Assembly (NCBI GenBank): GCA_008501785.1
Contig: QQUD01000445.1
Coordinates: 1-6,597, forward strand
Origin: Chloroflexota bacterium
Lineage (GTDB): Bacteria > Chloroflexota > Anaerolineae > Promineifilales > Promineifilaceae
Reading direction: 5' to 3'
DNA: 6,597 bases
Part shown: positions 1 through 6,525 of the stretch, in pieces
Position numbering within the stretch: the stretch's first letter is position 1
Layout of the letters: each line of letters begins with the position of its first letter
The notes under the pieces: generated by a model
What the model saw: the letters and a program-made list of their open reading frames with translations, nothing else
What the model was told of the DNA's origin: nothing
The model's database searches: none
Position numbers and translations under genes: made by a program

Positions 1-192
1 ATATTTGAAACACCGATGCTGGCTGGATTGCCCGAAAAAGCACGACTTTCATTGGGTCAACAAGTTCCATTCCCCCCACGTTTGGGCCAACCGGCTGAAT
101 ACGCTGCATTAGCACAACACATCATTGAGAATCAGATGCTGAATGGGGAAGTGATCCGGCTAGATGGGGCCATTCGGATGGCGGCAAAATGA
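1..192 (+). CDS. 3-hydroxyacyl-CoA dehydrogenase type-2-like short-chain dehydrogenase, C-terminal 63 residues (partial)
   Basis: Frame 1 is open from the window edge to the TGA at 190-192 and gives the last 63 residues of a protein whose start lies outside the window. The segment matches the family C-terminus I remember for HSD17B10 / 3-hydroxyacyl-CoA dehydrogenase type 2. It has F-x-T-P-M/L-L near the left end, then [24 protein letters not shown] and [13 protein letters not shown] at the end. In this family the fragment covers the substrate-side helices and the last Rossmann strand, while the NAD-binding glycine motif and the catalytic Ser-Tyr-Lys are upstream and unseen. Family members oxidise 3-hydroxyacyl-CoA to 3-ketoacyl-CoA with NAD+ in the cytoplasm, in fatty-acid or branched-chain degradation. 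The stop overlaps the ATG of rpe (ATGA), so the two genes are probably cotranscribed and translationally coupled. The family call is firm; the exact substrate is not known. Confidence 0.9.
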
Positions 193-863
193 TGGATGTG
201 AAATTGGCTCCCTCGATTTTAGCGGCTGATTTTCGCCGTCTGGAAGCCCATGTGCGTGAGGCTGTGGATGCAGGTATTGATTGGCTGCACATTGATATTA
301 TGGACGGCCGTTTTGTACCGAACATCTCGTTTGGTCCACTGGTGGTGGAGGCGTTACGGTCGTTAAAAGAAGAAACTGGCTGTATCTTGGATGTCCATTT
401 GATGATTGTTGAACCGGAAAAATATATACCTGCATTTGCTAAGGCTGGGGCTGACATCATCACCGTGCATGTAGAAGCCACCCACCATTTGCATCGTGCT
501 ATTCAGATGATTAAAGAACTGGGTGTGAAAGCTGGGGTGACGCTGAATCCGGCGACGCCACTAAATGTGTTGGAAGAGATTTTGCCAGATATTGATCTGG
601 CTTTGATCATGTCCGTCAATCCTGGTTTTGGCGGTCAAAGCTACATTCCTGGCAGCACACGTCGTATTCAGGCGCTGCGTGAACTGCTTGACATGATGAA
701 TCCTGGGGCATGGTTGGAAGTAGATGGCGGCGTGAAGCCGGACAACGCATATGAAATTGCAGCAGCAGGCGCGACAGTTTTAGTGGCAGGTAGTGCTGTT
801 TTTGGTGGTAATAAGTCGGTTGCAGAAAATGTTGTGGACTTTGGCCGCGTGTTGGATGGTTGA
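189..863 (+). CDS. rpe: Ribulose-phosphate 3-epimerase
   Basis: A complete 224-residue TIM-barrel enzyme of normal family length. It interconverts D-ribulose 5-phosphate and D-xylulose 5-phosphate in the cytoplasmic pentose phosphate pathway (or Calvin cycle where present). Visible family signatures are [10 protein letters not shown] at residues 6-15, [12 protein letters not shown] at 34-45 (metal ligands His34 and Asp36, the latter an acid/base residue), DVHLMI at 68-73 with His70, a phosphate/loop motif [10 protein letters not shown] at 141-150, and VDGGVKP at 178-184 with the second acid/base Asp179. The last phosphate-binding stretch VAGSAVFG is near the C-terminus. Two adjacent ATGs (189 and 192) could both start the protein; the first gives the classic 4-nt ATGA overlap with the upstream dehydrogenase stop. 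No strong Shine-Dalgarno is seen (only a weak GGATGGCGG), consistent with coupling to the upstream gene. A copy of the ACGGCCGT palindrome encodes Asp39-Gly40-Arg41. Confidence 0.97.
304..311. repeat. ACGGCCGT palindrome, copy 1
   Basis: Within rpe, encoding Asp-Gly-Arg (residues 39-41; palindrome read in frame xAC-GGC-CGT). Flanks are G and T. Here the protein motif is itself conserved, so this copy alone would be unremarkable. Confidence 0.9.
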
Positions 864-864
864 T

Positions 865-1830
865 CTATTCTGAAGTAACCAATTCTAATGTAACCAGCAG
901 CCCGATGTGGTCTGATGCCCATAAGTTTCCGTCTGGGGTCGGATACGGCCGTTTCCACACCAACGCGGCATCGTGAACAATCACCTCATTCGTTCGCGGC
1001 GATATGAACAAATAATCAAGACGGCTGTCGAACGAATTTGGGTCCCCGTTCAGCAGTTGATTTACACAACAAGTAAACCCTGAATCATGAGGATGGATCG
1101 TGCGATAGCTATCTATCCATTGTGCATTCAGGGTTTTTATTTGGGAAGTTGTTTCGGCTGCGTTGAAATCACCGGCAATAACGGCCGTATTTGTCGCTGT
1201 CTTTTCCACATATTCCAGGAGCGCGTTTGTTTGAGCTTTATTAATTTCTGTAGCACCATTTGTCAAATGTGTTACATATAAATCTATTCCCCCTTGCGGC
1301 GTTTCAGTCTTCGCATGCAGCACAACACGATGTTCGAAAAAGGCTGCCTGTGGCATCAATTCTGTAAAGTGTATATCTTGTAATGGGAATCGGCTTAAAA
1401 TTAGCTGCCCTTCTTCAAATCCTATCAATTTGAGATTACCATTTGCCCGAAAATAAACATAATTCATTCCTGTCTTTTCGGCCAGACAGGTGACAAAATT
1501 GTCATGATTTTTAATGAAAGGTACTTCTTGAAGAAAAACGAAATCAGGATTAAGTTTGCGAATTTCTGATGCGATCAAATCAACGCGTTGTTCGAGATAC
1601 AGATAGTCAGGATATCCGTGCAGCATATTGAGGGTTAAAATGTTGAGGTAACGGCCGTTTCCCCCACCAACAGTTGCACAATCTTGTCGGCATCCAATTG
1701 CCTCTGTGCCCGGCTTACTGACATTTTTCAAATATATATAAGAAAAAATGCCAACACTAATCAAGAAAATGGTTAACACGCAAGTAAGACGATGTTTAAA
1801 TTGATGATTGTTACGTGGGTTTACTGCCAT
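865..1830 (-). CDS. Membrane-anchored endonuclease/exonuclease/phosphatase family protein
   Basis: A 321-residue protein. A short basic N-terminus is followed by one hydrophobic segment (about residues 15-34), read as a signal anchor or uncleaved signal peptide. A linker containing Cys47 and Cys51 comes next, then an EEP (DNase I/exonuclease III-like) domain from about residue 61 to the end. All the metal/catalytic landmarks of the fold can be placed: Asn68 in LTLNML, Glu102 in LQEV, GQLILSR at 141-147, His188 in THL, Asp221 and Asn223 in GDFNA, Asp272 in DYLF, and Asp307-His308 in SDH. The enzyme should therefore be active as a Mg-dependent phosphodiesterase, probably outside the cytoplasmic membrane. 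Relatives include secreted nucleases, sphingomyelinase-like enzymes and phosphatases, and the substrate cannot be told from sequence. The ATG at 1830-1828 has only a weak purine-rich upstream stretch. The gene converges on rpe, with one base between stop codons, and diverges from the histidine kinase gene. It carries three ACGGCCGT copies, each in a different reading frame. Confidence 0.87.
   Translation of the reverse strand: MAVNPRNNHQFKHRLTCVLTIFLISVGIFSYIYLKNVSKPGTEAIGCRQDCATVGGGNGRYLNILTLNMLHGYPDYLYLEQRVDLIASEIRKLNPDFVFLQEVPFIKNHDNFVTCLAEKTGMNYVYFRANGNLKLIGFEEGQLILSRFPLQDIHFTELMPQAAFFEHRVVLHAKTETPQGGIDLYVTHLTNGATEINKAQTNALLEYVEKTATNTAVIAGDFNAAETTSQIKTLNAQWIDSYRTIHPHDSGFTCCVNQLLNGDPNSFDSRLDYLFISPRTNEVIVHDAALVWKRPYPTPDGNLWASDHIGLLVTLELVTSE
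945..952. repeat. ACGGCCGT palindrome, copy 2
   Basis: Within the minus-strand EEP gene, read in frame xxA-CGG-CCG-T as Lys-Arg-Pro-Tyr (293-296), the only copy in this frame. On the + strand it continues with TTCC, as copies 4 and 5 do. Confidence 0.9.
1181..1188. repeat. ACGGCCGT palindrome, copy 3
   Basis: Within the EEP gene, read as Thr-Ala-Val (215-217) immediately before the catalytic GDFN motif. Confidence 0.9.
1641..1672. repeat. Related palindrome plus C-tract element inside the EEP gene
   Basis: AACGGCCGTT (1650-1659) is followed by T and five C. TGTT...GGT on the left (1641-1649, two unpaired bases GA) pairs with ACCAACA on the right (1666-1672). It shares the 15-mer ACGGCCGTTTCCCCC with the kinase-gene copy at 3151-3165. 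Read on the minus strand it encodes V-G-G-G-N-G-R-Y, in the flexible linker just before the EEP domain. Confidence 0.45.
1651..1658. repeat. ACGGCCGT palindrome, copy 4
   Basis: Within the EEP gene linker, read as Asn-Gly-Arg (58-60). Extends to AACGGCCGTT and is followed by a C tract. Confidence 0.9.
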
Positions 1831-1870
1831 TAGACTAAACTTTTCATAGATGGATTTAATTAACGAGCTT

Positions 1871-1888
1871 ATTTTATGATAAAATCAT
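1871..1888. repeat. Overlapping short inverted repeats, candidate operator
   Basis: ATTTTAT-G-ATAAAAT (1871-1885) is a perfect odd-length palindrome. It overlaps a second one, ATGAT-AAA-ATCAT (1876-1888). Both lie in the divergent promoter region, about 41 nt upstream of the EEP start codon and about 130 nt upstream of the kinase start codon. The position suits a transcription-factor operator, but AT-rich DNA yields such palindromes by chance, so this is only a candidate. Confidence 0.35.
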
Positions 1889-1936
1889 CATGGTAGAAAC
1901 GATTATCTCTGTAGGGTGTAATTGTATTGGATTTTG

Positions 1937-1953
1937 AATAACAAATAGTTATT
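1937..1953. repeat. Inverted repeat AATAAC-N5-GTTATT, candidate operator
   Basis: Perfect 6-bp arms separated by 5 nt lie about 67 nt upstream of the histidine kinase ATG, in the divergent intergenic region. There is no T-run after it, so it is not a terminator. It could be a protein-binding dyad for the kinase promoter; that function is inferred only from symmetry and position. Confidence 0.3.
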
Positions 1954-2019
1954 GCATTTGTACAGTTTCCATGCACAAAGATCAAAAAAAATCCCTTACA
2001 ATAGCCCATAAGAAAAACC

Positions 2020-3426
2020 ATGTTTTCTTATTTGCGTCAATTAATTATTCCCCCCATATTTCCCACACTTGAAGAAACGCGTAAAGCGAAAATAATTCAC
2101 AACTTGCTCCTTCTTGGAATAGTTCTGGGAGTCGGCTTTGCCCTTATCGCAACTCCCTTTGTAAAGGATAATTCTGGTCCTGTTATTGCGGCATTCACTT
2201 CTGGGGTTTTTACCATTCTTTTTATTTTGTTAAGAAGAAAGAAACTGAAATTTGTTTGTGTTGCCATTATCGTATCAAGTTATATAGCAATCGTCATTTC
2301 GCTGCTTGTTAATGGGGGGCTGCGTGATGAAGCCGCGCTTGTTTTAATTGCATTATTAGCAGTGGCCAGCTTTTTTTTAGGTGAATGGGCAACAGTTGCA
2401 ATTGGTTTCATGACCGGGCTTGTTTTTATTGGATTGTTTATTGCTGAACATCGAGCATGGATTCCAGAAACTGAACATTTTTTCCCAGTAGGGACAGATG
2501 ATCTTTTGCTCGCGCTGATTGCAGTTTTGGCGACAACGACAATTTTACGTCAGTTAATGGGACAGTTAATAAAGGGAAATCATCAAATTCAGATACAGGC
2601 ACAGGAATTGGAAAAACAAACCCAATATTTAAAACAAACATTAGCTAATTTACAAGAAACACAGGCGGATTTGTTACTTGCAAAGGAAACAGCCGAGGAT
2701 GCGAATCAGGCTAAAAGTGATTTCTTATCCAAAATGAGTCACGATTTAAGGTCACCACTCTCCAGCATTGTGGGGTTTGCCGATGCTTTGAAAAGCAAGC
2801 CTGATTTATCCAATAAAAAGCGTGCTGAATTATTAGGGTATATTGAACGGAATGGACAATATCTATTTGGTTTGATTGACAATCTGTTGGATTTATCTCG
2901 TATTGAGGCGAATAAGTTGATTTTGTATCCTGAAGCATTTTCGTTGTTATCGTGTTTAACTGAAATTGTAACAATGATGCAGTTAAAAATTATCGGAAAA
3001 GACGTGCAAATTTTAACTGAGTTTGATGATCAATTACCAGTGACTTGGACAGCAGATGAGCAGCGACTTCGACAAGTATTGACAAATCTGCTAGAAAATG
3101 CGATTAAATTTACGCTAGAGGGAAGTGTGACTTTGCGGGTTTGTGTGAAAACGGCCGTTTCCCCCCCCACACAATCATCCATCCATTTTGCAGTCATCGA
3201 TACTGGCATCGGCATTCGCGATGATGATTTGTCCAGGATACTTAACCCATTTGAACAAATTGATATTCGCTCACAGCGAGGTCATGGAACAGGTCTGGGG
3301 TTGGCGATTTGCACCCAACTTGTCGAGTTAATGGGAGGCAAACTCAATGTTGAAAGCAAGGTAGGGCAAGGCAGTCGATTTTGGTTCGACCTGCCTGAGG
3401 TATCACGTGTTGGTGCAATAGATTAA
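2020..3426 (+). CDS. Membrane-bound sensor histidine kinase (orphan)
   Basis: A 468-residue kinase. The N-terminal third is membrane-embedded, with about six hydrophobic segments (roughly residues 26-47, 53-71, 77-97, 105-120, 124-142 and 161-178) and no recognisable extracellular sensor domain. A coiled-coil-like stretch rich in Gln, Glu and Leu (about 182-232) connects to the catalytic core. The HisKA domain has the H-box MSHDLRSP with phospho-acceptor His241. The HATPase_c domain shows the N-box with Asn360 (NLLENAIKF), the G1 box DTGIGI starting at Asp394, the F-box NPFEQ at 409-413, and the G2 box GHGTGLGL at 421-428. It should autophosphorylate His241 and pass phosphate to an aspartate on a response regulator, but no regulator gene adjoins it and no receiver domain is fused. 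The loop between the N-box and G1 box appears some seven residues longer than usual; it coincides with an ACGGCCGT palindrome and a C8 tract. The start ATG has only a weak AAGA upstream. Signal and partner are unknown. Confidence 0.93.
   Translation: MFSYLRQLIIPPIFPTLEETRKAKIIHNLLLLGIVLGVGFALIATPFVKDNSGPVIAAFTSGVFTILFILLRRKKLKFVCVAIIVSSYIAIVISLLVNGGLRDEAALVLIALLAVASFFLGEWATVAIGFMTGLVFIGLFIAEHRAWIPETEHFFPVGTDDLLLALIAVLATTTILRQLMGQLIKGNHQIQIQAQELEKQTQYLKQTLANLQETQADLLLAKETAEDANQAKSDFLSKMSHDLRSPLSSIVGFADALKSKPDLSNKKRAELLGYIERNGQYLFGLIDNLLDLSRIEANKLILYPEAFSLLSCLTEIVTMMQLKIIGKDVQILTEFDDQLPVTWTADEQRLRQVLTNLLENAIKFTLEGSVTLRVCVKTAVSPPTQSSIHFAVIDTGIGIRDDDLSRILNPFEQIDIRSQRGHGTGLGLAICTQLVELMGGKLNVESKVGQGSRFWFDLPEVSRVGAID
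3141..3174. repeat. Nested inverted repeat with palindrome core and C8 tract inside the kinase gene
   Basis: Perfect 7-bp outer arms, TTGTGTG (3141-3147) and CACACAA (3168-3174), enclose 20 nt. These include the 12-bp palindrome AAACGGCCGTTT (3149-3160) and most of a run of eight C (3161-3168). The element is translated as a loop containing K-T-A-V-S-P-P-T between HATPase motifs, where an insertion would be tolerated. It resembles the arrangement at 1641-1672, which suggests a small repeated element; that is inference. Confidence 0.5.
3151..3158. repeat. ACGGCCGT palindrome, copy 5
   Basis: Within the histidine kinase HATPase loop, read as Thr-Ala-Val (378-380). Extends to the 12-bp palindrome AAACGGCCGTTT and is followed by eight C. 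Confidence 0.9.
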
Positions 3427-3578
3427 TCGGCTCTGTTGTTATTAGCCATCGAATTTTCGTGCTGTATCCTGAAAATCCCATAAATTTTGGCAAAAAGTAT
3501 CCAATTTGAAACCTTTTCATTGTGAATCAGTTTGTTTATATAAAGCGCTTTTTCTGAATCACGTTGGAGAACGACGAT
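3427..3578 (+). promoter_or_regulatory. Leader and probable promoter region of the sigma factor operon
   Basis: These 152 nt separate the kinase stop from the chosen sigma-factor start and become AT-rich toward the right. Two weak promoter candidates can be pointed to. One is TTTTCA (3514-3519) with TATATA (3537-3542) at 17-nt spacing, resembling a housekeeping promoter. The other is TTGAAACC at 3506-3513, which resembles the AAC-containing -35 of some ECF promoters and could serve autoregulation, though no paired -10 is identified. No convincing terminator for the kinase is present; the only hairpin is a 4-bp GGCT/AGCC pair without a T-run. Confidence 0.4.
3566..3570 (+). promoter_or_regulatory. 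Ribosome binding site that decides the sigma factor start
   Basis: GGAGA sits 8 nt upstream of the ATG at 3579. The longer possible start, a TTG at 3564, would place this Shine-Dalgarno inside the coding sequence and has no comparable site of its own. The ATG at 3579 is therefore preferred. Confidence 0.75.
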
Positions 3579-4130
3579 ATGACGCATGAGATGACGGATG
3601 CAGAGTTAGTGGAACAAGTTCAAGCGGGTCAATCAGCCGCGATGTCCCAATTGTATCGACGATATAAAACGGCCGTTTTTCGCTACACCCTTTCCAAAGT
3701 ATACGATCCCAATTTAGCGCAGGACATTACCGGCGAAATATTTCTACGGATGGTGGCTCATCTGCCGCAGTACAAAGTTACGGATGTGCCATTTACGGTT
3801 TGGTTGTTTCGGATTGCCCGTAACTACATCATCACACATTTGCAAAAGGAAAACCGCTATCAGCTCATGCCCATCTCACAAACAGACAATTTGAGCCGTG
3901 CTGAAGATAATCCGGCACACATTGTGGAAGCACAGCTCGAATTGGAATGGATATGGCGCGGATTGCAGCAGCTTGATGAACAGCAGCGTGACGTTATCGT
4001 CTTGCGCTTCATCATTGGCCTCTCATTGAAGGAAGTTGCGTCTACATTAGAAAGAACGGTTGGTGCTATCAAAACATTGCAGCATCGTGGTATCACGGCG
4101 CTGCGCGTGGCGCTGCAAGTCGCTCGATAG
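3579..4130 (+). CDS. ECF-type (sigma-70 family) RNA polymerase sigma factor
   Basis: A 183-residue protein from the ATG at 3579, of normal ECF size, consisting only of sigma regions 2 and 4. Region 2 (about residues 8-93) begins with D-A-E-L-V-E-Q-V-Q-A-G and Y-R-R-Y. It continues with A-Q-D-I-T-G-E-I-F (region 2.2, core RNA polymerase contact) and F-T-V-W-L-F-R-I-A-R-N (region 2.3/2.4, -10 recognition and melting). A short variable linker follows. Region 4 (about 126-180) carries L-D-E-Q-Q-R-D-V-I-V-L-R-F and the helix-turn-helix S-L-K-E-V-A-S-T-L-E-R-T-V-G-A-I-K-T-L-Q-H-R for -35 binding. Its gene ends 10 nt before the FecR-like membrane protein, its presumed antagonist. ECF factors commonly drive their own operon, so autoregulation is likely but not shown. 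An ACGGCCGT palindrome encodes Thr31-Ala32-Val33 in region 2. Confidence 0.93.
   Translation: MTHEMTDAELVEQVQAGQSAAMSQLYRRYKTAVFRYTLSKVYDPNLAQDITGEIFLRMVAHLPQYKVTDVPFTVWLFRIARNYIITHLQKENRYQLMPISQTDNLSRAEDNPAHIVEAQLELEWIWRGLQQLDEQQRDVIVLRFIIGLSLKEVASTLERTVGAIKTLQHRGITALRVALQVAR
3669..3676. repeat. ACGGCCGT palindrome, copy 6
   Basis: Within the sigma factor gene, read as Thr-Ala-Val (31-33). Extends to AAACGGCCGTTT. Confidence 0.9.
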
Positions 4131-4134
4131 GTGG
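4129..4134 (+). promoter_or_regulatory. Ribosome binding site of the FecR/DUF5666 protein gene
   Basis: AGGTGG overlaps the last bases of the sigma-factor stop codon and lies 6 nt before the ATG at 4141. It supports that ATG over an in-frame ATG at 4060, which would overlap the sigma factor by 71 nt and add 27 residues rich in Cys, Arg and Trp unlike the rest of the protein. Its position suggests translational coupling to the sigma factor. Confidence 0.75.
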
Positions 4135-4140
4135 TTATTC

Positions 4141-6525
4141 ATGAAACAAAGTGAAGATTATTTACAAGAACTTGTCGAACGGTTAGAAAATGGCGAACCG
4201 GTTGCAGAATGTGTCGCTAGTTTGCCTGCGCAAGAAGCTGAGATTGTGGCATTAATAGATGCGATGCACAAGCTTTCTTTCCCTGAGGAGAATGAAGCAG
4301 TTGCAGCCGCACAAGAGGCAAAGTTGTTGGCAGCGACACAGGCGCAATTTTCAGGTGGGCGGGTCGGGGAAGATGATTTACCGATAACGGCCGTTATCCG
4401 CACCCAAATCCAAACATGGCTAGACCAACTGCCCATTCCGCGAGAATTAGCCTACGGTTTGGCCGCTGTACTGGTGATGATTCTATTTGCAGTTGTTTGG
4501 ACTAGCTTGTCTAATCGCCCTGGCGATGGTTTACCCATTCAAGTTGAAACAAGCACGGAGACGATTGTAGAAGTGGTGCCTACTTCTGCGGCTGGTGTGG
4601 TTGATGATCCGCCAGCAATTGATGCAGAACAACTCGCTGAACAAGCCGAAGTTGCCGCTATCCCACCGACACCACAAGGTCCGACGGTTTATTTGCCTTT
4701 GATGACCAGTCCGCTTGATTTTAGGGCGGAAACGGCCGTTATCGACAACATTCAAGGCATCGTAGAAATGCAAACGGACGATGGCGTGTGGACGGCCGTT
4801 AATCAAACGACCACAATTGCCGCTGGTCAGCTACTGCGCACCGGAAATCTGTCACAGGCAACACTCAATTTCTACGATGGCAGTCTAGCAAATCTCAGCG
4901 CCAACACCGAGATTTCAATTGATGAACTAAACGCCCTGCGACCAGAAAATGGCTTCCGCACCGTTGTGATGACCCAATGGACCGGCGACACTGACCACGC
5001 CGTCCAGTTCCGCAATGATGGTGGTTCTCGTTACGAAGTGAACACGCCAACTGGTTCAGGGATTGCCCGTGGCACTAAATTCCACGTCATGGTAACGGCC
5101 GATTTACTCACGCGCTACATTGTCACCGAAGGTCGCGTCGATGTCACCGGAGCTGGACGCATGGTTACCGTCACAGCGGGCAAGCTCTCCACTATTTTGC
5201 CAGAAACCGTACCTACAGAACCAGCTTTCAATATTGCTGGTGAAGGCGAAGTTGAAGCAACTGGCCCAGTCTGGACCATCGCCGGACAAACTTTTCAAAC
5301 ACATGAACATATGATTACGGTTGGCAATCCGCAGATTGGCGATTTGGTGCGAGTAAATGGCCATTTGCTGTCCGATGGCAGCCGTGTGGCAGATAGGATT
5401 GTGCTGGTGCGTCGTGCCATTGCTAACCGGTTTACATTTACGGGCACGGTCGAAGCAATGGGGGCTGCATGGACGGTTGCTTCCCAAACCATCACGGTCA
5501 ACAGCGGAACTGCTGTAGATGCCGACATCGTAATTGGAGCAAATGTACAAGTTTCAGGTATGATTTTGGCAGATGGAACGCTGCAAGCCAAGCAGATTGT
5601 TTTGCTCGATGAACTCCCTGGCCATCCATTTGAATTTAGCGGTGTGGTGCAATCGATTGGGTCTGACAGTTGGACAGTTTCGGGCCACACAATTGCCGTG
5701 GATGTGTTTACTGGAATTGAAACAGGTATTGTTGTGGGTGATGTGGTCACGGTTCGGGGCGTCATTTTAGCTAATGAGTCATGGCTGGCGGGCAACATTG
5801 TCCTCAAGTTTGATGCGTTGCCGACCTTTGAATTTACAGGTACGTTAAACGGCATGGCACCATGGCAGGTTGGTGGACTCTCGTTTGAAATTAAACCCTG
5901 GACGATTGTTGACCCGAATCTTGCCGTGGGTGATCTTGTTTCTGTTAAAGGCATTATTTTGAGTGATGGCACCCGCGTTGCCACAAATATTGTGTCTTTG
6001 GCGGAACCCATCAATAATGTGATCGTCTTTGCCGGAACAGTGACGAGCATGAACCCCTGGATTGTCGATGGTCTGCAATTGGTGGTCACTGACGATACAC
6101 AAATCATTGACAATATCACGATTGGTGCAATGGTGAGTGTCCGCGCCCGGCTCATGCCCGATGGTACGTGGTCAGTGCTCACCGTGCGGCTGCTGTATCC
6201 TGATTTTGGACAAGGCTGCTTGACAATTAGCTCGCCAGTGGTTGCATTTGACGCTGGCATGATTCGCGTAAAGCATTGGCATGTGGATATTAAGCGAGAC
6301 GGCCGTATCCACATCAAAGGTAATCTCAAAATAGACCATGTGATCACCGTGCCGCTTTGCACAGGTTGGGATGGGGTAACAATAATTGTGGGTGATATTA
6401 CCGTTATCTATCAGCCTGTCGTAATTATCATTAATGATGGCAATAGTAATGGTGGCTCATCCGACTGTCGTGGTAGCAAATGTTCAAACAGAGGATCAAA
6501 TAGAGGGTCAAAGAAAAGTGGTTAG
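4141..6525 (+). CDS. Single-pass membrane putative anti-sigma factor with FecR-like domain and five DUF5666-like repeats
   Basis: A 794-residue protein from the ATG at 4141. Residues 1-70 are acidic and helical (L-x-E-L-V-E-R-L-E-N-G-E-P-V-A-E-C), a pattern I associate with N-termini of anti-sigma-like proteins in Chloroflexota. It should be cytoplasmic and contact the sigma factor; no zinc-binding HxxxCxxC motif is present. One transmembrane helix spans about 103-123 and is followed by a Pro/Glu/Thr-rich linker. A FecR-like beta domain covers about 203-350 (G-I-V-E-M, G-Q-L-L-R-T-G, A-T-L-N-F-Y-D-G-S, T-P-T-G-S-G-I-A-R-G-T-K-F, V-T-E-G-R-V-D-V). Five repeats of 65-66 residues follow (363-690), resembling DUF5666. 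The last 100 residues are beta-rich, then turn Gly/Ser/Asn/Arg/Lys-rich with Cys776 and Cys781. Role as a surface sensor controlling the sigma factor is inferred from gene order and domain order. The ligand is unknown, and no TonB-type transducer, the usual FecR partner, is seen. Confidence 0.82.
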   Translation: MKQSEDYLQELVERLENGEPVAECVASLPAQEAEIVALIDAMHKLSFPEENEAVAAAQEAKLLAATQAQFSGGRVGEDDLPITAVIRTQIQTWLDQLPIPRELAYGLAAVLVMILFAVVWTSLSNRPGDGLPIQVETSTETIVEVVPTSAAGVVDDPPAIDAEQLAEQAEVAAIPPTPQGPTVYLPLMTSPLDFRAETAVIDNIQGIVEMQTDDGVWTAVNQTTTIAAGQLLRTGNLSQATLNFYDGSLANLSANTEISIDELNALRPENGFRTVVMTQWTGDTDHAVQFRNDGGSRYEVNTPTGSGIARGTKFHVMVTADLLTRYIVTEGRVDVTGAGRMVTVTAGKLSTILPETVPTEPAFNIAGEGEVEATGPVWTIAGQTFQTHEHMITVGNPQIGDLVRVNGHLLSDGSRVADRIVLVRRAIANRFTFTGTVEAMGAAWTVASQTITVNSGTAVDADIVIGANVQVSGMILADGTLQAKQIVLLDELPGHPFEFSGVVQSIGSDSWTVSGHTIAVDVFTGIETGIVVGDVVTVRGVILANESWLAGNIVLKFDALPTFEFTGTLNGMAPWQVGGLSFEIKPWTIVDPNLAVGDLVSVKGIILSDGTRVATNIVSLAEPINNVIVFAGTVTSMNPWIVDGLQLVVTDDTQIIDNITIGAMVSVRARLMPDGTWSVLTVRLLYPDFGQGCLTISSPVVAFDAGMIRVKHWHVDIKRDGRIHIKGNLKIDHVITVPLCTGWDGVTIIVGDITVIYQPVVIIINDGNSNGGSSDCRGSKCSNRGSNRGSKKSG
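4387..4394. repeat. ACGGCCGT palindrome, copy 7
   Basis: Within the anti-sigma gene just before the transmembrane segment, read as Thr-Ala-Val (83-85). Extends to the 12-bp palindrome TAACGGCCGTTA. Confidence 0.9.
4732..4739. repeat. ACGGCCGT palindrome, copy 8
   Basis: Within the anti-sigma gene at the start of the FecR-like domain, read as Thr-Ala-Val (198-200). Extends to AACGGCCGTT. Confidence 0.9.
4792..4799. repeat. ACGGCCGT palindrome, copy 9
   Basis: Within the FecR-like domain, read as Thr-Ala-Val (218-220), only 60 nt after copy 8. Flanks are G and T. Confidence 0.9.
5227..6210 (+). repeat. Five tandem DUF5666-like protein repeats (65-66 residues each)
   Basis: The units start at 5227, 5425, 5623, 5821 and 6016 and encode residues 363-428, 429-494, 495-560, 561-625 and 626-690. 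The common pattern is F-x-G-x-V-x-x-[MI]-x-x-x-W-x-V-x-x-x-x-[IF]-x-V, then I-x-x-G-x-x-V-x-V-x-G-x-[IL]-L-x-D-G-[ST]-x-x-A-x-x-I-V-L. The invariant first glycines are at residues 369, 435, 501, 567 and 632, giving periods of 66, 66, 66 and 65. Conservation is at protein level; the DNA copies have diverged, so this is an old internal duplication and not a recent DNA repeat. Units 4 and 5 lost one residue, and unit 5 replaces the terminal A-x-x-I-V by S-V-L-T-V-R. Confidence 0.85.
6299..6306. repeat. ACGGCCGT palindrome, copy 10
   Basis: Within the C-terminal part of the FecR/DUF5666 protein gene, read as Asp-Gly-Arg (720-722). Flanks are G and A. No exact copy lies between 4800 and 6298; a one-mismatch copy, ACGGCCGA, is at 5095-5102. 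Confidence 0.9.

What the first reader, a model, noticed from the sequence alone, without database searches (positions are those of the whole stretch)
304..6306. ACGGCCGT is a highly iterated palindrome in this genome (HIP1-like)
Ten exact copies of an 8-bp palindrome occur in 6597 nt, at 304, 945, 1181, 1651, 3151, 3669, 4387, 4732, 4792 and 6299. About 0.1 would be expected for equal base frequencies. Five extend to AACGGCCGTT (about 0.006 expected). They are spread over all five full-length genes and both coding strands. The analogy is the cyanobacterial HIP1 palindrome GCGATCGC, whose abundance is thought to be linked to methylation or repair. A comparable element with this sequence in the presumed Chloroflexota host is not something I know to be described. 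Possible causes are a solitary methyltransferase target (it contains GGCC and CGGCCG), biased repair, a nucleoid-protein site, or a mobile mini-element.
Basis: partly seen in the sequence, partly recalled or inferred. Interest (0 to 1): 0.82.

Follow-up and report, generated by a model that had tools for sequence, protein, structure and literature searches.

The report
Dialect-switching genomic palindrome in Chloroflexota
Relatives of this presumed Chloroflexota bacterium, and some phages, carry one 8-letter DNA word up to two thousand times per million letters, strongly enough to change their proteins, and related lineages use versions that differ only in the outermost letters, much like an unexplained pattern long known from cyanobacteria.

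Summary
ACGGCCGT occurs 10 times in the window (0.07 expected) and fills 10 of the 11 places its proteins allow. The window's own genome is not held. Of 59 related genomes, 22 carry ACGGCCGT at 437-2,102 copies/Mb, the density of cyanobacterial HIP1. Relatives keep the core CGGCCG but switch the outer base pair: two use TCGGCCGA (7,668 and 9,414 copies), one GCGGCCGC (12,040), with the other versions at background. Four have the hexamer with little flank preference. Sites nearly saturate permissible coding positions (604/677 in 400 kb of G014), occur between genes, survive divergence (34/37 kept at 80% identity; control octamers 19%) and alter proteins: Thr-Ala-Val is 6.9-fold over-represented, Ser-Ala-Glu 6.5-fold in a TCGGCCGA genome. 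IMG/VR contigs carry up to 3.7/kb, two with clear phage genes. Cytosine-5 methyltransferases and Vsr do not track it. An orphan-looking amino-methyltransferase does (23/25 versus 8/34 genomes), but phylogenetically controlled support is weak. Best reading: a HIP-class system outside cyanobacteria, a new variant with dialects. Mechanism is inferred: methylation-linked repair bias or a Chi-like self mark.

The parts
304..311 (.). ACGGCCGT site 1, in rpe, codons GAC GGC CGT (Asp-Gly-Arg)
945..952 (.). ACGGCCGT site 2, in the Exo_endo_phos gene (minus strand), Lys-Arg-Pro-Tyr frame
1181..1188 (.). ACGGCCGT site 3, in the Exo_endo_phos gene, Thr-Ala-Val frame
1651..1658 (.). ACGGCCGT site 4 (AACGGCCGTT), in the Exo_endo_phos gene, Asn-Gly-Arg
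3151..3158 (.). ACGGCCGT site 5 (AACGGCCGTT), in the histidine kinase gene, Thr-Ala-Val
3669..3676 (.). ACGGCCGT site 6 (AACGGCCGTT), in the ECF sigma factor gene, Thr-Ala-Val
4387..4394 (.). ACGGCCGT site 7 (AACGGCCGTT), in the FecR/DUF5666 gene, Thr-Ala-Val
4732..4739 (.). ACGGCCGT site 8 (AACGGCCGTT), in the FecR/DUF5666 gene, Thr-Ala-Val
4792..4799 (.). ACGGCCGT site 9, in the FecR/DUF5666 gene, Thr-Ala-Val
6299..6306 (.). ACGGCCGT site 10, in the FecR/DUF5666 gene, Asp-Gly-Arg
5095..5102 (.). ACGGCCGA, the only CGGCCG of the window outside the octamer (CGGCCG at 5096)
5509..5516 (.). ACTGCTGT, the only permissible coding place (Thr-Ala-Val) not filled by the octamer
189..863 (+). ribulose-phosphate 3-epimerase gene (rpe), host context
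   Evidence: Pfam PF00834, E 8.6e-79
865..1830 (-). endonuclease/exonuclease/phosphatase-family gene, host context
   Evidence: Pfam PF03372, E 2e-15
2020..3426 (+). sensor histidine kinase gene, host context
   Evidence: Pfam PF02518 and PF00512
3579..4130 (+). ECF-type sigma-70 factor gene, host context (start 3579 chosen by me; the listed ORF starts at 3564)
   Evidence: Pfam PF04542 and PF04545 on 3564-4130
4141..6525 (+). FecR domain and five DUF5666 stretches, host context (start 4141 chosen by me; the listed ORF starts at 4060)
   Evidence: Pfam PF04773 and PF18914

Best explanation
The window samples a genome with a highly iterated palindrome of the HIP class that belongs to a clade of Chloroflexota and has another core than cyanobacterial HIP1. 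SHOWN in relatives: one dominant octamer per genome made of the constant core CGGCCG and one lineage-specific outer base pair (A/T mostly; T/A and G/C in others) at about 1-2 per kb, in genes and between genes and in some viral contigs; it arises by base substitution, is kept far better than other octamers, and is strong enough to change amino acids. INFERRED: a sequence-specific cellular process reads core plus outer pair and favours their creation and retention in any DNA that replicates in the cell. The candidate writer is the approximately 660-aa alpha-type amino-methyltransferase with zinc-ribbon-like cysteines found in 23 of 25 octamer genomes. Confidence: about 0.97 that this is a real HIP-class system, about 0.35-0.4 for the methylation-linked repair mechanism; the figure below is for the statement as a whole.
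For: Counts: 25 of 59 relatives have one dominant octamer, 22 A-type (437-2,102/Mb, median 1,518), 2 T-type (1,207 and 1,504), 1 G-type (1,505) (densities). z = 122 for ACGGCCGT in 400 kb of G014 and 75 for TCGGCCGA in 200 kb of G019 with third-order Markov; the next palindrome reaches 3.0 and 3.6. Fill of amino-acid-permissible positions: 604/677 (G014), 267/354 (G019), 61/77 (G025), against 0-5% for the other flanks of CGGCCG in the same three genomes; RpoB+FusA 63 of 75 in 19 A-type rows against 1 of 49 in 13 HIP-poor rows (my sums). Fourteen cyanobacterial loci, picked because they are HIP1-rich, give 0.62-0.95 by the same measure. Amino-acid effect: TAV 353 against 51 expected in G014 but 1.0x and 1.2x in G019 and G035; SAE 122 against 19 in G019 but 0.5x in G014. 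Maintenance: 34/37 HIPs kept at 80.5% identity against 0.19 for control octamers. Noncoding: 66 observed, 0.6 expected. One-off variants are enriched at the outer positions (1.4-4.0x), not consistently at the inner ones. RpoB tree: one clade of 28 rows (SH-aLRT 98) holds all 21 octamer genomes that are in the tree. Viral contigs: 36 of 94 stretches dense, fill 0.69-0.97 in ten contigs examined. Methyltransferase: 23/25 versus 8/34 (Fisher 1.6e-7); within the RpoB clade 20/21 versus 2/7 (p 0.0012).
Against: No methylation data exist here; the methyltransferase's target base and site are unknown. It is present in HIP-poor genomes (G009, G031, G035, G044, G045, partial G038) and in hexamer-type G017, so it is at best necessary and not sufficient, and not found in two A-type genomes (G016, G024; MAG incompleteness not measurable). 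The search profile was built from five A-type proteins, which favours A-type hits. In T-type G019 the gene is split over two frames, and the tool counts one in-frame stop in the matches of G029, G039, G042 and G043. Over 200 random sets of phylogenetically independent pairs, 1-3 pairs (mean 2.5) agree and none disagrees (median p 0.25). No excess of C-to-T one-offs (ATGGCCGT 24 against 40 expected), so no m5C footprint. Elhai's rule (methylated C preceded by G) does not predict A and T flanks if the first C of the core is the target, and predicts no flank preference if the C of GGCC is (my reading). Fill is low in some A-type rows (RpoB+FusA: G018 1/4, G020 2/5, G030 2/4), and two contigs of G002 have 0 and 1 octamers in 28 kb. 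Saturation could come from selection on each site instead of a repair bias.
Confidence: 0.5

Rival explanations
1. Self-identity (Chi-like) mark: a nuclease, helicase or recombination machine of the cell stops or is tamed at the octamer, so DNA without it is degraded; chromosome and phages are selected to carry it densely. A dialect change follows a change of the reading machine.
For: Of 94 viral stretches 17 exceed 2 octamers per kb, up to 3.7, above the usual host density (several stretches share a contig), and two contigs have clear phage genes: terminase and portal in L432, prohead protease and head/portal-like proteins in L404. Spacing is close to random with about one site per 0.6 kb. 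In 5 of 20 contexts the candidate methyltransferase gene is followed by a NurA-like end-resection nuclease gene (Pfam on one of the five). Dialects resemble those of uptake sequences (recalled).
Against: Known Chi sites are not palindromic (recalled). No reader was identified; NurA adjacency is in 5 of 20 only. Selection for one site among some 10,000 should be weak, yet permissible places are 63-100% filled in the octamer genomes pooled over their fetched ORFs. No convincing T- or G-type phage was found (0 of 48; 7 of 120 dense stretches, the six listed ones 63-71% GC).
Confidence: 0.28
2. Selected chromosomal binding site for a nucleoid, segregation or replication protein.
For: Genome-wide spread and strong conservation.
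Against: No orientation is possible, spacing is close to exponential (CV 0.94-1.17, slightly fewer gaps under 100 bp than expected), there is no consistent preference for noncoding DNA in hosts, and some viral contigs carry it more densely than hosts.
Confidence: 0.12
3. DNA uptake sequence for natural transformation.
For: Comparable copy numbers and dialect evolution are known for uptake sequences (recalled; PMC1939737 seen in a listing only).
Against: About as dense inside genes as between them in G014, G019 and G025; dense viral contigs are not explained by uptake. Competence genes were not searched.
Confidence: 0.08
4. Codon or amino-acid usage artefact, or GC-rich composition.
For: ACG GCC GTN spells Thr-Ala-Val, common residues.
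Against: The reversed control and the other flanks stay low in the same genomes; noncoding enrichment is 110-fold; the dialects exchange between relatives.
Confidence: 0.01
5. Mobile mini-element.
For: High copy number.
Against: Sites align without gaps to non-HIP octamers of relatives, including one-base variants; beyond one or two biased bases no longer shared flank is seen.
Confidence: 0.01

Closest known systems
HIP1 (GCGATCGC) of cyanobacteria
   Same: Single GC-rich palindromic octamer with a constant 6-bp core; about 1,000-2,000 per Mb (PMC4390886 section 3.1); deviations concentrated at positions 1 and 8 (section 2.6); same saturation of permissible coding positions (0.62-0.95 in 14 HIP1-rich cyanobacterial loci); dense viral contigs exist for it too (6 of 120 stretches).
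   Different: Different phylum and core (CGGCCG, not CGATCG). Near-complete exchange of the outer base pair between relatives; [quoted passage not shown] No universal m5C methyltransferase here.
Alternate HIPs of single cyanobacteria (GGCGCC, rCCGGy, GCsGC, GGGATCCC; PMC4390886 section 2.3)
   Same: One dominant GC-rich palindrome at HIP-like density where HIP1 is low.
   Different: Those are sporadic; here one core runs through a clade of 28 sampled genomes with dialects.
Chi sites
   Same: Frequent octamers spread through the genome; phages may carry them (recalled).
   Different: Chi is asymmetric and oriented (recalled); here palindromic and near-saturated.
DNA uptake sequences (Neisseria, Pasteurellaceae)
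   Same: High copy number, lineage-specific dialects with a constant core (recalled).
   Different: Not palindromic (recalled); here no excess between genes.
DUF1156-type and other alpha-class amino-methyltransferases
   Same: The candidate writer matches PF01555 above cut-off and, below cut-off, PF06634 (DUF1156); parts of it match PADLOC Type II methyltransferase models.
   Different: About 660 aa against 944-960 positions in the DUF1156 anti-phage models; far below the NCBIfam cut-off; no neighbour shared by more than 5 of 20 contexts.

Membership tests
HIP class (as proposed in PMC4390886) | One GC-rich palindrome far more over-represented than all others | tested here: met
   z 122 and 75 against 3.0 and 3.6 for the next palindrome; 75-100% GC
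HIP class | Density of about 500-2,500 per Mb (section 2.3) | tested here: met
   437-2,102/Mb in 25 of 59 genomes, one of them (G041, 437) just below the range
HIP class | One-base deviations concentrated at the first and last positions | tested here: met
   1.38-4.02x at position 1; 0.35-1.62x at positions 2-4 (A-type pool); the T and G pools are too small to tell
HIP class | Spread by substitution, in and between genes | tested here: met
HIP class | A methyltransferase able to methylate the site is present | tested here: inconclusive
   m5C family not found in 11 of 25 octamer genomes; amino-methyltransferase in 23 of 25, specificity unknown
HIP class | Site is methylated in vivo | not testable with these tools
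   no methylation data
HIP1 sensu stricto | Sequence GCGATCGC over-represented | tested here: not met
   fill 2 of 213 in G014
Restriction-modification target site | Site avoided; restriction gene beside the methyltransferase | tested here: not met
   site enriched; no neighbour shared by more than 5 of 20 contexts; single neighbours were not annotated
VSP repair product (Vsr) | Vsr endonuclease present in the genomes | tested here: not met
   7 of 59 genomes, 5 of 25 octamer genomes
Chi site | Modulates a recombination nuclease | not testable with these tools
   needs biochemistry
Chi site | Asymmetric, oriented along replication (recalled) | tested here: not met
   the sequence is palindromic
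DNA uptake sequence | Preferential uptake; competence machinery | not tested
   competence genes not searched
DUF1156 anti-phage methyltransferase (NF042963) | Score above the curated cut-off of 1000 bits | tested here: not met
   71.2 and 67.5 bits for the two proteins tested

The most novel reading that the evidence does not exclude
The octamer is a heritable genome dialect: a machine in the cell reads CGGCCG plus the outer base pair on any DNA and either rewrites near-matches into it or spares only DNA that has it. Lineages have switched dialect (A, T or G outside) and rewritten about ten thousand sites, changing their proteins on the way, and phages must speak the host's dialect. HIP1 of cyanobacteria would be one more dialect of the same kind of machine with another core.
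Probability: 0.3. Interest if true: 0.93.

Novelty: new variant of a known kind. Interest (0 to 1): 0.82.

Why it matters
HIP1 was described in 1995 and, in the papers seen here, its cause is still argued over and is studied in cyanobacteria. A second case in another phylum, with natural dialect switches between relatives, hexamer-only states, losses, and dense viral contigs, gives contrasts for separating core from flank; if the first C or the C of GGCC is the methylated base, the published G-before-methyl-C rule does not account for the A and T flanks, and a testable writer enzyme is named. It also shows a short DNA word reshaping a proteome (the most over-represented tripeptide differs by dialect), which matters for codon-based, phylogenetic and gene-transfer analyses and could give a host signature for phages in metagenomes.

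Tried and rejected
Own-genome count: not possible. Vsr as the cause: 7 of 59 genomes only. m5C methyltransferase as the universal writer: PF00145 in 22 of 59, not found in 11 of 25 octamer genomes. Canonical PF01555 enzymes: in 56 of 59 genomes at E 0.001; among the 30 loci per family that the calls returned no cluster spans the octamer genomes (the families had many more matches, so that clustering is partial). Conserved neighbour of the candidate methyltransferase: none in more than 5 of 20 contexts. Methyltransferase carried by phages: only 12 weak relatives in viral contigs. T- and G-dialect phages: none convincing (0 of 48 and 7 of 120 stretches). m5C deamination footprint: none. Structure of the candidate methyltransferase: confident model (pLDDT 84.5), but Foldseek matches only parts of a generic SAM-methyltransferase fold (best Trm11, E 2.6e-4; CcrM 4e-3; N4-cytosine methyltransferase 1.4e-2), so the target base is not told. 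Literature: 10 searches listed no report of a HIP in Chloroflexota; lists were capped and judged by title and abstract (20 of 196 papers listed, none opened); the library holds open-licence papers only, and the 2011 survey of HIP1 among prokaryotes (PMC3271550) is not held. One search used whole-word matching on a word stem and so was too strict. PMC12772301 and PMC8093824 (passages) turned out to be about other subjects.

The density script used 37 of the 59 genomes; the other 22 I read off the call outputs (0-180 ACGGCCGT each). G002, G015 and G027 had no RpoB match and G016 only a fragment that I dropped, so 21 of 25 octamer genomes are in the RpoB tree. ORFs were called by length, not by a gene finder. 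Fill counts positions that the present proteins permit, so it is partly circular; RpoB/FusA, where HIP-poor genomes have as many permissible positions, and the cross-dialect counts are the controls. Conservation comes from 15 locus pairs, one of which gave no alignment and two of which are the same region. After checking, I lowered interest from 0.84 to 0.82 because the paper on HIPs already names two cyanobacteria in which a flank variant (TCGATCGA) is dominant.

Full report
OBSERVATION. ACGGCCGT is present exactly at the ten stated places and AACGGCCGTT at five. None of 200 dinucleotide shuffles held more than two. Ten of the eleven CGGCCG of the window sit in the octamer; the other is ACGGCCGA with its core at 5096. 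With the five proteins kept and synonymous codons redrawn, the mean is 0.45 and the largest of 2,000 is 5. Of 11 coding places where the amino acids permit the octamer, 10 have it; six of the ten read Thr-Ala-Val.

HOST AND RELATIVES. The window's own genome is not held. Its ribulose-phosphate epimerase led to relatives. Among 11 genomes counted first, a MAG titled Anaerolineaceae bacterium NAT123 (L002 = G002) has 11,907 copies in 8.1 Mb, a Chloroflexi MAG (L004 = G004) 8,313 in 5.0 Mb, and an Ardenticatenaceae MAG (L005 = G005) 1,189 in 7.4 Mb; the seven others with Chloroflexota-type titles have 9-201 and one titled Thermoanaerobaculia has 269. Among 59 relatives of G002 the best epimerase matches to the window are 71-73% identical (G023, G022).

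DIALECTS. In these 59 genomes I counted the four palindromic flanks of CGGCCG and, as the tool's reversed control, the four of GCCGGC. In 25 genomes one flank exceeds every other at least nine-fold: 22 with ACGGCCGT (437-2,102 per Mb), two with TCGGCCGA (G019: 7,668, with only 85 ACGGCCGT; G042: 9,414 against 198), one with GCGGCCGC (G025: 12,040 against 83, 65 and 69) (densities). G023 instead has TGCCGGCA (3,665), a different core. G028, G036, G005 and G017 have CGGCCG with little flank preference (flank tables; in G028's rpoB region 53 CGGCCG among 74 GGCC). The remaining 29 show none of these. Of them G038 has 1,785 CCGGCCGG, more than eleven times its other flanks, and G009, G044, G045 and G046 have 982-2,126; all are about twice their reversed control (GGCCGGCC), the fetched sequence of these genomes is GC-rich (58-64%), and I do not count them as a fourth dialect, though a weak C dialect is not excluded. 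On an RpoB tree of 39 genomes the 21 octamer genomes present all fall in one group of 28 (SH-aLRT 98): one part of 21 rows (95) is A-dialect but for three (G017 hexamer; G032 and G035 none), the other of seven (93) holds the T, G, TGCCGGCA and three hexamer states; G042 (T) and G028 (hexamer) are sisters. Four octamer genomes (G002, G015, G016, G027) are not in the tree for want of a full RpoB match.

STRENGTH. In 400 kb of G014, ACGGCCGT is seen 653 times against 25.7 from a third-order Markov model (z 122); the next palindromic octamer has z 3.0. In 200 kb of G019, TCGGCCGA is 308 against 14.7 (z 75). In 200 kb of HIP-poor G035 the largest z is 3.2 (ACGGCCGT 28 against 16, z 2.9). I defined fill as the share of coding positions, permitted by the amino acids, that hold the octamer. 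It is 604/677 in G014, 267/354 for the T word in G019, 61/77 for the G word in G025, and 0-5% for the other flanks there. In RpoB plus FusA, where HIP-poor genomes have as many permitted positions, 19 A-type rows fill 63 of 75 and 13 HIP-poor rows 1 of 49 (my sums; low A-type rows are G018 1/4, G020 2/5, G030 2/4, and the short G016 fragment 0/1). Over all ORFs fetched by then, the A-type genomes range from 0.63 to 1.00, and 14 cyanobacterial loci, chosen as HIP1-rich, give 0.62-0.95 for GCGATCGC by the same script. So the quantitative behaviour is that of HIP1.

EFFECT ON PROTEINS. Permitted positions themselves are two to three times denser in the matching dialect (56 per 10,000 residues for the A word in G014 against 16-26 in G019, G035 and G025; 60 for the T word in G019 against 23 in G014; the G word is less clear, 57 in G025 but 66 in GC-rich G035). 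Thr-Ala-Val, the in-frame reading of ACG GCC GTN, is the most over-represented tripeptide of 120,000 residues of G014 (353 against 51), while it is 1.0x in G019 and 1.2x in G035; Ser-Ala-Glu is the top one in G019 (122 against 19) and 0.5x in G014; TAI, TAL and SAV are not raised in G014. At RpoB alignment column 4067 fifteen A-type genomes share the octamer where others have varied codons. The process is therefore strong enough to change amino acids.

ANATOMY. Density is similar in and between genes (1.67 and 1.27 per kb in G014; 1.51 and 1.74 in G019; 1.52 and 1.13 in G025); in strictly noncoding DNA of 20 A-type genomes 66 copies are seen against 0.6 expected. Spacing is near exponential (CV 0.94-1.17). 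The next base outward is also biased: A 0.60 in the A dialect, T 0.62 in the T dialect, C 0.59 in the G dialect. One-base variants are enriched at the outer position (1.38-4.02x) and not systematically inside (0.35-1.62x); there is no C-to-T excess. Between relatives the octamer is kept much more often than control octamers of six G+C: 34/37 against 0.19 (G013/G014, 80.5% identity), 46/52 against 0.50 (G034/G015), 24/34 against 0.23 (another G013/G014 region), the weakest pair being 2/4 (G004/G039). Sites change by substitution without gaps, which excludes a mobile element.

PHAGES. A scan of IMG/VR for the extended word GAAACGGCCGTTTC gave 94 stretches, 36 of them with at least four octamers at more than 0.8 per kb, up to 49 in 13.2 kb; several stretches share a contig. 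I ran ten proteins of four contigs: two contigs have clear phage structural genes (L432: terminase phrog_979 E 1e-113 and portal; L404: prohead protease, head-morphogenesis and portal-like), L362 has FtsK-like and transglycosylase matches, and L359 only a weak replication-protein match. Fill in ten contigs is 0.69-0.97 and noncoding density is up to 5.3 per kb. The same kind of scan gave 0 dense stretches of 48 for the T word and 7 of 120 for the G word, the six of those that I listed having 63-71% GC; for HIP1 it gave 6 of 120, among them 45 copies in 11 kb. Whatever favours the word thus acts on, or matters to, non-chromosomal DNA as well.

SEARCH FOR THE AGENT. Cytosine-5 methyltransferases (PF00145) are in 22 of 59 genomes and not found in 11 of the 25 octamer genomes. 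Vsr is in 7 of 59. PF01555 is in 56 of 59, but a closer look at ten A-type genomes exposed a family of about 660 aa in motif order I, then a long middle part with cysteine pairs, then TDPPY. Pfam calls it PF01555 in two pieces with DUF1156 below cut-off; NCBIfam models match far below their cut-offs and PADLOC models only partially. A profile of it (A1, five A-type proteins) hits 23 of 25 octamer genomes above 300 bits (not G016, a very fragmented MAG, nor G024) and 8 of 34 others (G009, G017, G031, G035, G038 partial, G044, G045, and G064 at 467 bits); the hexamer-type genomes G005, G028 and G036 lack it. Fisher's test gives 1.6e-7 over all 59 and 0.0012 inside the RpoB clade (20/21 against 2/7), but phylogenetically independent pairs give 1-3 (mean 2.5) for and 0 against (median p 0.25). 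Motif I and TDPPY are present in the 20 aligned rows, HIP-poor ones included; in G019, not among the 20, the gene is split over two frames, and the tool counts one in-frame stop in the matches of G029, G039, G042 and G043. No neighbour is shared by more than 5 of 20 contexts; in 5 a NurA-like gene follows (PF09376, E 1.8e-18, tested on one). Its protein tree does not follow the RpoB tree throughout. The model (pLDDT 84.5) matches only generic SAM-methyltransferase parts. A protein search found 1,522 relatives, of which 120 were listed, those with names being from Chloroflexota-type sources. I rate it as the best candidate writer, necessary-but-not-sufficient at most, and unproven.

MECHANISM. 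Shown in relatives: one octamer per lineage; core fixed and outer pair exchangeable; near-saturation; protein change; retention; presence in viral contigs. Inferred: a reader of core plus outer pair. Under Elhai's model a repair system uses a G followed by methyl-C (PMC4390886, section 3.4 part 1 of 2 read). A methylation-linked repair bias explains creation and retention in any replicating DNA, phages included; a Chi-like self mark explains the same through selection. I put the first somewhat ahead (0.35-0.4 against 0.28) because fill approaches completion at single sites among some ten thousand, but strong selection is not excluded.

COMPARISON AND NOVELTY. By the defining features that could be tested this belongs to the HIP class, not to HIP1 itself (GCGATCGC fills 2 of 213 in G014). 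Alternate HIPs are known as sporadic cases in cyanobacteria, and the flank variant TCGATCGA is named there as the dominant octamer of two cyanobacteria (section 2.3 read), although section 3.1 says it 'was never observed to replace' HIP1. So a flank variant as such is not new; new here are the phylum, the core, and near-complete exchange of the outer pair between relatives in three sampled genomes. The terms 'Chloroflex' and 'CGGCCG' were not found in that paper. Ten literature searches listed no HIP in Chloroflexota, within an open-licence library; the 1995 and 2011 HIP1 papers were not read. A 2012 paper on gene-transfer detection remarks that very few bacterial genomes have octamers as frequent as HIP1 (PMC3497702, passages). 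I call it a new variant of a known kind.

Noticed in passing
G023 (L156, L157, L161): A relative with TGCCGGCA as its dominant octamer (3,665 in 4.0 Mb; fill 21/36): another core, GCCGGC, in the same clade.
   Followed up: partly
G025 and G028: GCCGGC palindromes nearly absent (1-5 copies of each of the four flanks in 8.0 Mb of G025; 2-4 of three flanks and 43 of the fourth in G028), as if a restriction system against GCCGGC were or had been present.
   Followed up: no
G065 (L237): GGCC almost absent (2 in 15.3 kb) together with several cytosine-5 methyltransferase matches; looks like GGCC avoidance.
   Followed up: no
L141 and L143 (contigs C1 and C20 of G002): 0 and 1 octamers in 16.8 and 11.7 kb within a HIP-rich MAG: foreign or misbinned contigs, or recent acquisitions; the word could serve as a binning check.
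   Followed up: no
L721 and L693 (IMG/VR): Viral contigs with HIP1 GCGATCGC at about 4 per kb (45 in 11.0 kb, 54 in 13.6 kb): a phage parallel may exist for cyanobacterial HIP1; their genes were not examined.
   Followed up: partly
L432:9698-10948: The HIP-dense phage contig encodes its own PF01555 methyltransferase (417 aa) a few genes from its terminase.
   Followed up: no
L309, L304, L301, L312, L318: NurA-like gene downstream of the candidate methyltransferase, then a 206-225-aa ORF without a Pfam match in the one member tested.
   Followed up: partly
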